Positions 38,224 to 43,670 of a DNA stretch of 64,000 nucleotides are shown piece after piece. Location: the NCBI GenBank assembly GCA_022482785.1, contig JAKVON010000002.1, positions 124,001-188,000 on the forward strand. Reading direction: 5' to 3'. The stretch comes from Atopobiaceae bacterium. GTDB lineage: Bacteria > Actinomycetota > Coriobacteriia > Coriobacteriales > Atopobiaceae. A program made the translations under genes and the position numbers. Each line of letters begins with the position of its first letter. Positions within the stretch are counted from its first letter, which is position 1. The notes beneath the pieces are model-generated. The model did no database searches. It was given only the letters and a program-made list of their open reading frames with translations, and was not told the DNA's origin.

Positions 38224-38490
38224 CTAGGAGAGCTCGTGCCTCGGCTCCGAGATTTTGACGCCCCGGAAAAGGCCGAAGTCATGCGTTTGCAGGGCATCAT
38301 AGAACGGATTGCCCATGCCCGGCCCCCACTGGCTCCTCGAGGTTCCGCCGGAGACGCTTGAGAGGATGTCGTCGGGCAGGGCGATCCTCTCAGCCCTCGC
38401 GAGGGAGATGACCTCCTCGACCGATTTGCACTCGCCGAACTTCTTCGCTTGCTCCGGAGAAAGACTCTTTGCGAACTCTTCCCAATCCAT
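38224..38490 (-). CDS. Nif11-like leader peptide (double-glycine) putative RiPP precursor, copy 1
   Basis: MDWEEFAKSLSPEQAKKFGECKSVEEVISLARAERIALPDDILSSVSGG | TSRSQWGPGMGNPFYDALQTHDFGLFRG...; AAGGAGG SD. Confidence 0.75.
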   Translation of the reverse strand: MDWEEFAKSLSPEQAKKFGECKSVEEVISLARAERIALPDDILSSVSGGTSRSQWGPGMGNPFYDALQTHDFGLFRGVKISEPRHELS

Positions 38491-38643
38491 GGCGTGCCTC
38501 CTTAAGCGAAACCCTGATCTTGGTGGAATTCTGCCCAACGGCGTGGCCGGAAAATCTTAATAAAGTGTTAGGAAAAAGAAACCACGGCCAGCACGCGCGG
38601 GGACGTTCCTCCGTCGGGATTCCAGTGCCTGGCACCGCCTGTG

Positions 38644-40344
38644 CTAGCCTTTGCCCATGCCGCCCGAGAACCGCCCGCCGCCCGTGGCGCCTCCCTGCGT
38701 GACCGAGCCCACGATCGTGGAGCTCATCGTCACGCTGGTCGAGGCCGAGCCGTTCGAGACGGTGTAGGTCTGGCCGGCCTGCATCGAGGGGCTGCTCACG
38801 ACAACGCACTGGTACGACTTGCCGGTCGTGCCCGACATCAGCACGTTCCCCGCGGCATCGGTCACGGTGATGGTGTCGCCGGCGCTGCCGGAGAGGCTCA
38901 CGAGCGCCGCGCACTGCGTTCCCGCGGAGAAGTTCTCGGCCATGCCCGAGGCACCTGCGGCGATGACCGTGCCGCCGGAGACGGTGGCCTCCGAGCCGTA
39001 GTCGAGCGCGCCGTTGCCGGAGTCCTCGGGGCCCCAGACGCGGACGGTGCCGCCGCTCACCTCGAGGGTGCCGTTGGAGTCGAGGCCGTCGCCGCCCGTG
39101 GTGCAGGTGAGCGTGCCGCCCGAGATGGTGAGGTCGCAGCTGTCGTCGACGTCGTTCGCCATGCCGAGGCCCATGCCGCCTCCCCCGGAGGCGTCTCCCG
39201 AGCCCGTCGCGCCGCTCGTGGCGCTTGTCGCGTTGGCGTCCATGCCAGGTGCCCCGCCGCCGTGGAAGTCGCTGCCCGCGGTGGCGGAGGGGGTGCCGCC
39301 CATGCCGGTGTCGGCCGTGCCGCTCGTGGTCGAGGGGCTGGCGGCGTTCACGGAGTCGTCGGTCGAGACGATGCTCACGTCGCCGGCCGTCTGCAGCACG
39401 GTCTGGCCCTCGAGCCCCTCGTAGCAGCTCTGGATGTCGATCGTCCCGCCGTCGACGCGCGTCGCGCCCTCCGCGTGCACGGCGTCGTCGCCCGCGTTCA
39501 CGGTGAGGGTGCCGCCGGCGACGTAGACGTAGCCGAGCGCGTCGCTCGAGGTGTCGGCATGGATGGCGTCGGTGTCGACCTTGATGTTGTAGGTGCCGCT
39601 CGCGATGCGCACGGAGTTGTTGGCCTTGAGCCCGCTGCCCGATGCGGTCACGTTCAGCGTGACGCCGGCGCAGACCAGGTCGTCCTTCGACACGATGGCG
39701 TGGCCCTGGGCAGAGCTCACGCTCAGCGTGCCGGTCCCGTTGATGGTGAGGTCGTCATGCGAGAAGACGGTGGCGTCGGCCTTGTCGTCGGATGCCTGGG
39801 CTATCGTGCCCGTGGTGGCAAGCGAGCTGGCCTGCCCGCCCTCGACGGTGAGGAAGGTCTTGTCGGCGCTCTTCACGTAGACGGCAGGCAGGGCCGAATT
39901 GGTGATGGTGACCCCCTCGAGCACGATTTGCACCTTGTCCGAGTCGCCTGCGTCGACCACGATCTGGCCGTCGGTGAGCGAGCCCGTGACCACGTAGGTG
40001 CCGCCCTTGCTGATGGTGATGACGTTGCCGCTGATCGAGACCCCGGCCGAGCTCGATGCGGTCGAGGCGTTGTCGGCCAGGGTGATGGTGACGGCCGAGC
40101 CGTTCTCGTAGTTGCCCGAGAGGTCCTTGTCGGTGAACATGTTCGAGACGTCGAGGTCTGCGGCCTTGGTGGCCGTGAGGGTGGTGCCGTCCGAGCTGCT
40201 TGCCGTCGTGCTCGCGGCGCTCGTGGTCGCGCTCGCAGACGAGGTGCTCGTTTGCGAGCAGCCGCCCAGCGCGAGCGCGCAGGCGAGCCCTGCGGCGATG
40301 GCGCCGGCGGCGATGCGCCCGTGCGTGCGGTCGTTAGAGTTCAT
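38644..40344 (-). CDS. Secreted carbohydrate-binding-domain lipoprotein (CotH-operon-associated type)
   Basis: Lipobox LACALALGGCSQ; repetitive beta-strand repeats (ISGGTLTC, VSGGTV); operon with DUF4956 and VTC proteins. Confidence 0.7.
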   Translation of the reverse strand: MNSNDRTHGRIAAGAIAAGLACALALGGCSQTSTSSASATTSAASTTASSSDGTTLTATKAADLDVSNMFTDKDLSGNYENGSAVTITLADNASTASSSAGVSISGNVITISKGGTYVVTGSLTDGQIVVDAGDSDKVQIVLEGVTITNSALPAVYVKSADKTFLTVEGGQASSLATTGTIAQASDDKADATVFSHDDLTINGTGTLSVSSAQGHAIVSKDDLVCAGVTLNVTASGSGLKANNSVRIASGTYNIKVDTDAIHADTSSDALGYVYVAGGTLTVNAGDDAVHAEGATRVDGGTIDIQSCYEGLEGQTVLQTAGDVSIVSTDDSVNAASPSTTSGTADTGMGGTPSATAGSDFHGGGAPGMDANATSATSGATGSGDASGGGGMGLGMANDVDDSCDLTISGGTLTCTTGGDGLDSNGTLEVSGGTVRVWGPEDSGNGALDYGSEATVSGGTVIAAGASGMAENFSAGTQCAALVSLSGSAGDTITVTDAAGNVLMSGTTGKSYQCVVVSSPSMQAGQTYTVSNGSASTSVTMSSTIVGSVTQGGATGGGRFSGGMGKG

Positions 40345-41023
40345 AGCTGTTGGCCTCCTGTCGGCTGATGGCGATCTCGAGGTTGCCGTTGCGGCAGCGG
40401 AGCTGGTCGATGAAGGCCTTCTCCTGGGCGAGGTCGCGCATGGCGATGTCATAGGTGAGCTTGTAGAGGCTGCCCATGTTGGTGGTCTTCACGCTCACCA
40501 GGTCGTGGCTCGAGGTATAGCTCTCGAGAAGGTCGTCGAACTCGCCCGCGTAGTCGAGGTCCTCGGGCACGGTGATGCGGAGCGTCCTGTGGCGGTCGTC
40601 GCCAAGGCCGAGGCCGGTGTGGTCGAACAGCACCATGCAGCCTCCCAGGATGAGGGCGAACAGCACGGCGTAGCCCAGGTAACCCATGCCACAGACGAGG
40701 CCGGTCCCCATGGCGAGGAAGAGCGAGCCAATCTCGCGCGCCGAGCCGGGAACCGATCGGAACCGCACCAGGCTGAAGGTGCCCGCGACGGCGACCCCGG
40801 CACCGATGTTGCCGTTCACCATGATGATGATCACGGTCACGATGGCGGGAAGCAGGGCGAGCGTGGTGACGAAGCTCGCCGAGGAGCGGCCCGACCTGGA
40901 GTGGACGAAGGCCAGGAAGACCCCGATGGCGAGGGCGGCGGCGATGCAGGCGACGAACGACCCCACCGCCACCGAGCCGCTCGACGCGGTTGAGTCGAAG
41001 ATGCAGGCGAACAGGTTAGGCAT
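40334..41023 (-). CDS. DUF4956-family membrane protein
   Basis: GNIGAGVAVAGTFSLVRFRSVPGSAREIGSLFLAMGTGLVCGMGYLGYA. Confidence 0.82.
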   Translation of the reverse strand: MPNLFACIFDSTASSGSVAVGSFVACIAAALAIGVFLAFVHSRSGRSSASFVTTLALLPAIVTVIIIMVNGNIGAGVAVAGTFSLVRFRSVPGSAREIGSLFLAMGTGLVCGMGYLGYAVLFALILGGCMVLFDHTGLGLGDDRHRTLRITVPEDLDYAGEFDDLLESYTSSHDLVSVKTTNMGSLYKLTYDIAMRDLAQEKAFIDQLRCRNGNLEIAISRQEANSYEL

Positions 41024-41858
41024 AGTTGGCCTTCCTCTCGTGACGGACTGGCTGATAGCCGGCGGCCAGGTGGGCAGGCACGCCAGGGACCAGGTGGAGC
41101 CTGGGGCGGCGATCCCCGAGCCGTGCGACCCTCTCGGCCTGGCGCGTGCGCTCGCGGGCGAGGTAGGCCTTGCCCACCTTGGAGAACGGAACCTGGTAGA
41201 GGCTGTTCGCGGTGAGGAAATCGACCAGCCAGAGCGGGATGGCCCCGGCGGTCTTGACCTCCATGAGGGTCTGGCCCTGCCCGAGGAGGGGATGGCCGTC
41301 GGTCCCGTCGGTAAGCGCGAGCCGCGAGTCGCGCCAGCGGATGTCGGTGTCGAGGGTGATGCGGAAGTCGGGGTCGTCCGCCGCGTAGTAGGCACAGCGG
41401 TCGCTCGCGACGAAGAATGCCGGGGCTATGCCGCGGTAGCGGCGGACGAAGTAGTCTATCTCGCGGGAGACCTGGTCTTCTCCGGGAAAGCCGTCCGAGG
41501 AGAGGCTGGCGAGCGCGCGGCTCGCCGTGGAGCCGATGCGGCGCTTGTACACGACCCCGTCGAGCTTCTCCTTGACCTCCACGTAGGCGGGGGAGTCTGG
41601 GGCCACGTCGCCATAGGCGCGCACGCGGAGCTTCTCCTTGTAGGGGCCTCCCTCGATCGAGCGGCGGATGAGCACGTTGGAGGGGGTGTCGAAGTAGACG
41701 TTGGAGATGGTGCTCTGGCCCCAGGCGTCGGCCGCCATGTGGGGGCGCATGACCGCGTCGAGCTTGGCACGCTGCTTGACGTCGAGCAGGTACTTGAGCT
41801 CGTAGCGCTTGAAGACGAGCTGTGCCGGGATCTGCTGCGTCGCGAGTGCGGTTTCCAT
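41016..41858 (-). CDS. VTC-domain (polyphosphate polymerase-like) protein
   Basis: FKRYELKYLLDVKQRAKL, ISNVYFDTPSNVLIRRSIEGGPYKEKLRVRAYG, YVEVKEKLDGVVYKRRI, LMEVKTAGAIPLWL. Confidence 0.85.
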   Translation of the reverse strand: METALATQQIPAQLVFKRYELKYLLDVKQRAKLDAVMRPHMAADAWGQSTISNVYFDTPSNVLIRRSIEGGPYKEKLRVRAYGDVAPDSPAYVEVKEKLDGVVYKRRIGSTASRALASLSSDGFPGEDQVSREIDYFVRRYRGIAPAFFVASDRCAYYAADDPDFRITLDTDIRWRDSRLALTDGTDGHPLLGQGQTLMEVKTAGAIPLWLVDFLTANSLYQVPFSKVGKAYLARERTRQAERVARLGDRRPRLHLVPGVPAHLAAGYQPVRHERKANYA

Positions 41859-42035
41859 GGCTGTCCTTCCGTCGCGCTGGTGGGCCCCATTGGCCCCGAG
41901 GACAGACTAGCGGGTAAAGGCAGCGTAAAAAGGCCAGGAAGAAGGGTATGCGCAAAGCTCGCGCAAGGCTTCGGGCAGGCTGAATGCAGGCGGAAGGCGG
42001 GCTGAAAGGGGAGGGGAGGGCGCGGTCGGCAAAGG

Positions 42036-42121
42036 AGGAGGGCCAGCACCCTGGTGTGGGTGCTGGCCCTCCTGCGCCTCTTGGGAAAAGGCAGCCTGCG
42101 GTCGTTGGGAGCGACCGCAGG
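42036..42121. terminator. Tandem hairpins downstream of Nif11-like copy 2
   Basis: AGGAGGGCCAGCACCC/GGGTGCTGGCCCTCCT (16-bp, 42036-42073) and CCTGCGGTCG/CGACCGCAGG (42095-42121). Confidence 0.6.
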
Positions 42122-42131
42122 TGGCCCGGAG

Positions 42132-42380
42132 CTAGCTCCTGTGGTTGATCCTGTCCATCAGGAAGCGATAGGAGGTCTTCGGGTTATAGAGGAGATCGTA
42201 GAAAGGATCGCCTGGGGTGCCCGTGTTGCACCGGCCGCCTGCGATGCCATCGAGGAACTCGTCCGGAAGGGCGAGCTTCTCCTCCCTGGCGACCGCGGTG
42301 ACGTCCTCGATGGTCTTGCAGGCGTCGAGCTTCTTCGCCTGCTCCTCGGTAAGACTCTTCGCGAACTCTTCCATGTTCAT
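42132..42380 (-). CDS. Nif11-like leader peptide (double-glycine) putative RiPP precursor, copy 2
   Basis: MNMEEFAKSLTEEQAKKLDACKTIEDVTAVAREEKLALPDEFLDGIAGG | RCNTGTPGDPFYDLLYNPKTSYRFLMDRINHRS; CAGGAGG SD. Confidence 0.78.
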   Translation of the reverse strand: MNMEEFAKSLTEEQAKKLDACKTIEDVTAVAREEKLALPDEFLDGIAGGRCNTGTPGDPFYDLLYNPKTSYRFLMDRINHRS

Positions 42381-42596
42381 GGCATGCCTCCTGGTTGTGA
42401 GGGTCGACTTGGCAGCTATCTACCCCCTGCGTCGAGAAAAAGCATCAAGTAAGTTTAAAGACTCGAGCATCTTGAAAAAGGCATCGGATGCATTCGCCCC
42501 TGTTCGCACCATTGGCCCTGGCACAGGGGTGCTGGGCATTTGTTGTCCGGCCCGTGCGCGAGAATGCGGGATAGCCGCAATCGAGGAGGATGTCCC

Positions 42597-43670
42597 ATGG
42601 TGAAGGAAAGCACGCCCCGCCCAACCGCGACGGACGCCTCTCTCGTAGGGAGGTCCGCCTCCTGGCACCTGGCCCGCCCCCTTGCGCCCGCGCTGCTCGG
42701 ATCGAGCGGGGGCGTGCAGATCGGCCGCGTGTTCTCGCCCTGGAGCATCGCATATGTCGCAGAGATGCTGTTGCTCGGGTCTGCCGGGGGGACGCGGGAG
42801 GCCCTGGCGGAGAAGCTCGGACAGGGAGGGCCCGGCGATGTCTCTGCGCCCTGTCTCGCCGCCGGGGCCGGCTGGCTGGATGTCGCAGCCCGTCCCTCGC
42901 AGGAGTTCCTGGGCGCGTGCGCGCGGCGCGGCATTTGCGTCGAGCGGTGCCGTCTGGCAGACCGTGCCTCGGGAGAGGCCATCTCCGCCTGGATTACGGA
43001 GCACACGAAGGGGCTGTTCCGCCCCAAGGTGGAGCTGGGCGCGGATGCGCTTGCCTGCCTGGTGAGCGCCATCTACTTCAAGGACGCCTGGGACGTGCCC
43101 TTCGATCCCGAGCTCACGGCGGAGGGGGAGTTCCGCCTCGAGTCGGGCAAGGTGACAGATGTGCAGCTCATGGCCGTCTCCGAGGAGCTTGCCGTGGTGG
43201 ACTACCCGGCCGCGAGCGTGACGGCCCGAACGTTTGCGAGCGGCGCCCGCATGGTCTTCGCGCTGCCCAGGGAGGGCGTCCCCGTGGATTCGCTGTTGGA
43301 GGGGGCCGCGCTCGAGGCTATGGAGGACTACCTCGCCCCGCGCAGGCGCCACCGCGAGATGGTCTACCTCAAGGTTCCCGAGTTCGACTTCGCCTCCTCG
43401 TACAGCGGGCTCGAGCGCGAGCTCATGGGAGGCACCGACTGCGACCTCACCCCCATGGTGGGAGACCGGCCAGCGCTGCTGCAGGTGGTCCACGAGGCCA
43501 AGGTGGTGGTGAACGAGGAGGGCGCCGAGGCCGCCGCCTATACGATGGCCGTCACCCTTGGCTGCGCTGGCCCGAGGGAGCCGCGGGAGTTCGTGCTGGA
43601 CCGGCCGTTCGTGTTCGCGATCGTGTCGGCGGAGGGCGAGCTGCTGTTCATGGGGGCCGTGCGGGGGTGA
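42597..43670 (+). CDS. Serpin (serine protease inhibitor family)
   Basis: VFSPWSIAYVAEMLLLGSAGGTREAL, VSAIYFKDAWDVPFDP, VVHEAKVVVNEEGAEAAAYTMAVT hinge/RCL, FVLDRPFVFAIVSAEGELLFMGAV. Confidence 0.92.
   Translation: MVKESTPRPTATDASLVGRSASWHLARPLAPALLGSSGGVQIGRVFSPWSIAYVAEMLLLGSAGGTREALAEKLGQGGPGDVSAPCLAAGAGWLDVAARPSQEFLGACARRGICVERCRLADRASGEAISAWITEHTKGLFRPKVELGADALACLVSAIYFKDAWDVPFDPELTAEGEFRLESGKVTDVQLMAVSEELAVVDYPAASVTARTFASGARMVFALPREGVPVDSLLEGAALEAMEDYLAPRRRHREMVYLKVPEFDFASSYSGLERELMGGTDCDLTPMVGDRPALLQVVHEAKVVVNEEGAEAAAYTMAVTLGCAGPREPREFVLDRPFVFAIVSAEGELLFMGAVRG

What the first reader, a model, noticed from the sequence alone, without database searches (positions are those of the whole stretch)
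38224..42380. Two paralogous Nif11-like double-glycine peptides with a conserved '(N/D)PFYD' core and no visible modification enzyme
Copies at 38224-38490 and 42132-42380 share leader sequence (MxxEEFAKSLxxEQAKKxxxCKxxEEVxxxAxxExxALPDxxLxxxxGG). After the GG they share a second motif (GPGMGNPFYDALQ versus GTPGDPFYDLLY). Only one core has a Cys, which argues against a classical lanthipeptide. Conservation on both sides of the GG suggests functional cores or an unusual peptide class. No LanM, rSAM, YcaO or peptidase-ABC gene is visible in the window.
Basis: partly seen in the sequence, partly recalled or inferred. Interest (0 to 1): 0.72.

Follow-up and report, generated by a model that had tools for sequence, protein, structure and literature searches.

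The report
Orphan double-glycine peptides of gut Atopobiaceae
Two small genes encode secreted-peptide precursors whose cutting-and-export machines, though absent from the window, sit elsewhere in the same genome; they are unusual members of a large, diverse peptide family of ruminant-gut Coriobacteriia, and seem to leave the cell without the usual chemical modification.

Summary
Both ORFs are on the minus strand (88 and 82 aa), each with a Shine-Dalgarno site. They are 52% identical over 67 aa, and the shared block after GG, G[ND]PFYD.L, beats shuffled cores (p=0.0014). They are two of four same-leader paralogues in a draft genome of GTDB family Atopobiaceae; the other cores differ, and one is zinc-ribbon-like. 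The 'missing' exporter exists in trans: four NHLM/LahT-type C39-ABC transporters, three of them intact, all keeping the catalytic Cys/His/Asp. Leader positions -1, -2, -4, -7 and -12 match what the LahT co-crystal structure reads. Across 140 family genomes, all 41 with this leader also have the NHLM exporter; 92 of the 99 without it lack the exporter. YcaO, LanC-like proteins and the radical-SAM maturase that accompanies the peptides in relatives (32 of 41 carriers) were not found in this genome. In relatives, 120 of 130 distinct cores carry a Trp within five residues of GG; none of the four peptides here does. Best reading: trans-exported Nif11-like precursors, probably unmodified, with a lineage-specific core. 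Their biological role is not shown. The general kind (N11P/NHLM) has been known since 2010; this is an outlying variant.

The parts
38224..38490 (-). pepA: 88-aa precursor; leader MDWEEFAKSL...ILSSVSGG (49 aa), core TSRSQWGPGMGNPFYDALQTHDFGLFRGVKISEPRHELS (39 aa, no Cys)
   Evidence: AF2 model: helical leader, disordered tail
38344..38490 (-). pepA leader with V-4, L-7, L-12 and GG
   Evidence: alignments; position census of 70 relatives; LahT co-crystal contacts in PMC6363468
38290..38313 (-). pepA core block GNPFYDAL
   Evidence: p=0.0014 against shuffles
42132..42380 (-). pepB: 82-aa precursor; leader MNMEEFAKSL...FLDGIAGG (49 aa), core RCNTGTPGDPFYDLLYNPKTSYRFLMDRINHRS (33 aa, one Cys)
   Evidence: Pfam Nif11 16.1 bits, below its 23.8 cut-off
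42189..42212 (-). pepB core block GDPFYDLL
42095..42121 (-). terminator-like hairpin just after pepB, which would make pepB monocistronic
   Evidence: the number of such sites in the region equals chance expectation, so weak evidence
38647..41858 (-). three genes between the two peptides: VTC-domain protein (41858-41016), DUF4956 (41023-40337), Cthe_2159 carbohydrate-binding protein (40344-38647); no maturase

Best explanation
pepA and pepB are precursors of secreted peptides with an outlying Nif11-like (N11P) double-glycine leader. After translation the helical leader docks on the C39 peptidase domain of NHLM-type ABC exporters encoded elsewhere in the genome (contigs C3, C9, C19, and C28 in part). 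The exporter cuts after GG and releases 39- and 33-residue cores. No dedicated modification enzyme was found for them, so the cores most likely leave unmodified and act outside the cell as signal or antagonist peptides. Shown: the genes, paralogy, leader grammar, intact exporters, and co-occurrence of leader class and exporter. Inferred: cleavage, export, absence of modification, and the biological role.
For: Three full TIGR03796 NHLM_micro_ABC1 exporters above cut-off and a fourth cut off at a contig end; catalytic Cys, His and Asp kept in all four. The best solved relative of the C9 peptidase domain is LahT150, 6MPZ, E=3e-58, which experimentally cleaves diverse Nif11-type precursors at GG (PMC6363468). 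Its co-crystal contacts V-4, L-7 and L-12 are V/L/L in pepA and I/L/L in pepB, and hydrophobic at these sites in nearly all of 70 relatives, with GG in 70 of 70. Co-occurrence in 140 Atopobiaceae genomes: 41 carriers of the leader all have NHLM_ABC1; 7 have the exporter only, 92 neither. Class peptides lie within a few kb of NHLM exporters in several relatives. Relatives match TIGR03798 (12 of 18) and PF07862 (11 of 18). The maturase that sits about 80 bp from such peptides in relatives was not found in this genome; nor were YcaO or LanC.
Against: Neither window peptide reaches a curated Nif11 cut-off. No exporter is adjacent, and which of the four serves them is unknown. A radical-SAM/SPASM gene beside exporter genes on C28 and C19 could still modify them. 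The genome is about 85% complete, so absences are provisional. Co-occurrence follows genus lines, so the counts are not independent. Cores are not clearly cationic or amphipathic, and no activity is known.
Confidence: 0.7

Rival explanations
1. They are RiPP precursors modified in trans by the radical-SAM/SPASM enzyme encoded beside the NHLM exporters on C28/C19, then exported.
For: An rSAM/SPASM of 459 aa lies divergent from HlyD-C39 genes on C28, with an identical N-terminal part on C19. In relatives a different, TIGR04463-like rSAM lies about 80 bp from such peptides. Maturases serving scattered precursors in trans are known for prochlorosins (PMC10783134).
Against: The four peptides of this genome share no residue pattern in their cores, and pepA has no Cys. 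They lack the GG-proximal Trp of the family. The C28/C19 rSAM matches no Nif11-peptide maturase at its cut-off and may serve the long-leader peptide on C19 instead.
Confidence: 0.15
2. They are small cytosolic proteins or decaying remnants: the leader is retained from ancestry, but nothing is cleaved or exported.
For: No adjacent exporter or maturase; cores not conserved outside this genome; AF2 gives a helical leader and a disordered tail.
Against: The GG and the -4/-7/-12 positions are kept in all four paralogues; leader dN/dS about 0.43; the PFYD block is kept across synonymous changes; good Shine-Dalgarno sites; 41 of 41 co-occurrence with the exporter.
Confidence: 0.1
3. They are the two halves of a two-peptide (class IIb-like) unmodified bacteriocin.
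For: Two paralogous double-glycine precursors 4 kb apart on one strand without modification genes; weak leader-only matches to TIGR03949 among relatives.
Against: Probably not co-transcribed (three unrelated genes and a terminator-like hairpin between them), no immunity gene recognised beside them, cores of unlike length and low net charge, two further paralogues with unrelated cores.
Confidence: 0.05

Closest known systems
N11P / Nif11-like leader RiPP precursors (TIGR03798, PF07862; Haft 2010, PMC2887384)
   Same: Leader ending in acidic-L..[VI][SA]GG, hypervariable cores, paralogous expansion, co-occurrence with TIGR03796/TIGR03797/TIGR03794 exporters.
   Different: The window peptides fall below both curated cut-offs, have 49-aa rather than about 70-aa leaders, and no LanM or TOMM enzyme was found in the genome.
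LahA1-9 / LahT of Lachnospiraceae C6A11 (PMC6363468)
   Same: Several Nif11-type leaders with diverse cores handled by one tolerant C39 exporter; same recognition positions; its protease domain is the closest solved relative of the genome's exporter.
   Different: lah is a compact lanthipeptide operon; here precursors are scattered orphans and no lanthipeptide enzyme was found.
Prochlorosins / synechococsins (ProcA; PMC10783134)
   Same: Scattered precursors served in trans, hypervariable cores.
   Different: Prochlorosins are made by one promiscuous LanM; no LanC-like protein was found here.
TIGR04463-type radical-SAM Cys-rich peptide systems
   Same: The relatives of pepA/pepB in other Atopobiaceae sit next to such rSAMs (score below cut-off) and have Cys-rich cores.
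   Different: No such rSAM was found in this genome, and its peptides lack the GG-proximal Trp; pepA lacks Cys.

Membership tests
Nif11-like leader precursor (TIGR03798 / PF07862) | profile match above the curated cut-off | tested here: not met
   pepA no hit, pepB 16.1 bits against 23.8. Relatives of the class that their profile recovers match TIGR03798 in 12 of 18 (best 3.6e-10) and PF07862 in 11 of 18 (best 1.8e-12). Filed as Nif11-like, not as Nif11.
Nif11-like leader precursor (TIGR03798 / PF07862) | double-glycine end with conserved hydrophobic -4/-7/-12 and acidic residues | tested here: met
   pepA ALPDDILSSVSGG, pepB ALPDEFLDGIAGG; census
Nif11-like leader precursor (TIGR03798 / PF07862) | hypervariable core in a paralogous set | tested here: met
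   four paralogues with different cores in the genome, 134 distinct cores in the collected set
NHLM-exported peptide | species distribution correlated with TIGR03796 | tested here: met
   41/0/7/92 table over 140 genomes; genus clustering not corrected for
NHLM-exported peptide | cleavage after GG and secretion | not testable with these tools
   needs in vitro cleavage or LC-MS
lanthipeptide | LanC-like cyclase (LanM/LanC) in the genome | tested here: not met
   PF05147 none in the genome; genome about 85% complete
TOMM/LAP | YcaO cyclodehydratase | tested here: not met
   PF02624 none in the genome, controls ring
rSAM-matured Cys-rich peptide | cognate rSAM and Cys-rich core | tested here: not met
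   no A5-type rSAM found (same query rings in 42 relatives); pepA has no Cys and pepB one. The unrelated C28/C19 rSAM was not excluded as a partner.

The most novel reading that the evidence does not exclude
Coriobacteriia carry a large, hardly described class of NHLM-exported peptides defined by a Trp placed one to five residues after GG, with cores that are short and Cys-rich or are whole zinc-ribbon modules. The window's lineage has lost both the Trp and the associated radical-SAM maturase and has turned the system into an exporter of unmodified peptides with its own PFYD core.
Probability: 0.3. Interest if true: 0.6.

Novelty: new variant of a known kind. Interest (0 to 1): 0.42.

Why it matters
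It shows that 'orphan' double-glycine peptides scattered through a gut genome can be assigned to exporters encoded far away, using leader grammar and co-occurrence. It also points to a wide, mostly unnamed peptide repertoire in ruminant-gut Coriobacteriia with two testable peculiarities: a near-invariant Trp right after the cut site, and zinc-ribbon cores behind an export leader. The natural contrast between this genome (no Trp, no rSAM) and its relatives (Trp, rSAM) offers a direct test of what the rSAM modifies.

Tried and rejected
A strict regex for GG peptides printed nothing and was corrected. An apparent shared core in the C3 paralogue (DFG) was not better than shuffles (p=0.64), so it is not claimed as a PFYD relative. 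Trp as strict substrate of the neighbouring rSAM: weakened, because some genomes without that rSAM, such as G133 (99% complete), still have Trp cores. Trp as an exporter requirement: weakened, because the exporters are kept here without it. No sigma-70-like promoter was found near the peptides, and no long shared upstream motif. Literature searches found no paper on this class in Coriobacteriia apart from NHLP/Nif11 clusters noted in Eggerthella lenta (PMC4289311); the library lacks most subscription journals.

Full report
WHAT IS THERE. Both have the same Shine-Dalgarno string AGGAGGCA beginning 12 nt before the start codon. They are 52% identical over 67 residues, E=2e-23. Each has a 49-residue leader ending ALPD..L...[SA]GG. 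Beyond GG only an 8-residue block aligns (GNPFYDAL / GDPFYDLL; shuffle p=0.0014), with synonymous codon changes inside it, whereas the leader has dN 0.27 and dS 0.64. The block is therefore more than a recent duplication echo, though with two sequences the case for selection is modest. AlphaFold2 gives a helical leader (pLDDT about 70), a short helix at PFYD and a disordered tail. Between the two genes lie a VTC-domain protein, a DUF4956 protein and a Cthe_2159 carbohydrate-binding protein. No C39, SPASM, YcaO or LanC-like hit falls on the window's contig.

THE REST OF THE GENOME. A profile of the pair finds two more paralogues: C3:205874-206137 (core AGFPCSEDSMFNEKYMTNGHLDFGKWLDRKRKPGQPHAN) and C5:190340 (core with a CPKC...CWNC zinc-ribbon pattern). 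A second, long-leader Nif11 set sits as an array on C13 with singles on C19 and C1. Four C39 exporters exist on C28, C19, C3 and C9. Three are full NHLM_micro_ABC1 above the curated cut-off and the fourth is cut by a contig end. C3 and C9 have the ABC2 partner, and all four keep the catalytic Cys, His and Asp. No YcaO or LanC-like protein was found, but the genome is only about 85% complete.

RELATIVES. In 140 genomes of the family, 41 carry this leader class, up to 38 matches per genome. All 41 have NHLM_ABC1; 7 others have the exporter without the leader; 92 have neither. The table is clustered by genus, so its Fisher p (1.7e-28) overstates the evidence; the complete absence of leader-without-exporter is the telling part. 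A named scan shows the class in ruminant-gut Olsenella, Atopobiaceae, Eggerthellaceae and other Coriobacteriia MAGs, and in Olsenella intestinalis KCTC 25379. That record agrees with G044 by position, so the window's family is read as GTDB Atopobiaceae (inference). Relatives match TIGR03798 and PF07862, whereas pepA and pepB stay below the cut-offs.

MECHANISM. The nearest solved relative of the exporter peptidase is LahT150 (6MPZ, E=3e-58). LahT150 cuts many Nif11-type precursors after GG; in its co-crystal structure V-4, L-7 and L-12 of the leader fill a hydrophobic groove (PMC6363468). pepA has V, L, L and pepB I, L, L at these positions; in 70 relatives GG is invariant and the three sites are hydrophobic in nearly all. 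The best reading is recognition, GG cleavage and export in trans. Haft and colleagues had shown the same exporter co-occurrence for the NHLP kind (PMC2887384), so the principle is known.

MODIFICATION. In relatives a TIGR04463-like radical-SAM enzyme sits at a median 80 bp from the peptides in nine loci. It occurs in 32 of 41 leader-bearing genomes and in 1 of 99 others (E below 1e-80). It was not found in the window's genome. Among 130 distinct cores outside this genome, 120 have a Trp within five residues of GG against a background of 2.2%; none of the four peptides here does (pepA's Trp is at the sixth position). The joint lack of Trp and rSAM suggests the window peptides go out unmodified. 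Counter-evidence: a few genomes without this rSAM keep the Trp (for example G133), and another rSAM/SPASM beside exporter genes on C28 and C19 could act in trans.

LIMITS. No PFYD core was found outside this genome, so its function cannot be inferred by comparison. Cleavage, export, modification state and biological role are all untested. Neighbour gene calls in relatives come from a crude ORF picker; only those confirmed by profile search are named.

Noticed in passing
relatives, e.g. L080:5694-5963, L045, L048, L170; own genome L009:1397-1671: About 30 of 171 collected leader-class peptides have zinc-ribbon-like cores (C..C then C..C) directly after the GG export motif; some match Pfam zinc-ribbon models weakly.
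   Followed up: partly
171 peptides in loci L025-L170: A Trp sits within five residues after GG in 120 of 130 distinct cores; no explanation was found in the papers searched.
   Followed up: partly
L165:3277-4470, L165:6307-7488, L080:18272-19510, L113:1199-2548: A ~400-aa protein family sits about 120 bp from these peptides in several relatives; one member shows a sub-cut-off HipA-like C-terminal match and an HTH, two others scanned match no Pfam or NCBIfam model.
   Followed up: partly
L080:15853-17876, L093:1633-4772, L108:1497, L113:2919: A ~340-aa family, often in tandem paralogues near the peptides; the members scanned have no Pfam or NCBIfam match.
   Followed up: partly
own genome C13 (L018:4443-8400), C19, C1: Array of long-leader Nif11 peptides whose short cores mostly end in Cys or PxxC (e.g. 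VKPTLTVPHPKC, TRHPTLPNC, RKC); C13 and C1 share an identical leader with different cores (SNGEMIHP, FRNGEAMIP).
   Followed up: partly
own genome C9 (L017:1125-5240) and C28 (L014:2721-7553): Large subtilase (Peptidase_S8) genes lie next to two of the NHLM exporter loci.
   Followed up: no
own genome C19 (L015:9855-12408): The NHLM ABC2 gene on C19 appears split between two frames (frameshift or assembly error).
   Followed up: no
own genome C3 (L016:16486-16800): A further double-glycine peptide (IPDEALSGVSGG leader end) lies a few kb from the C3 NHLM exporter.
   Followed up: no
window 42558-43670: A serpin-family protease inhibitor gene follows pepB's locus on the opposite strand.
   Followed up: no
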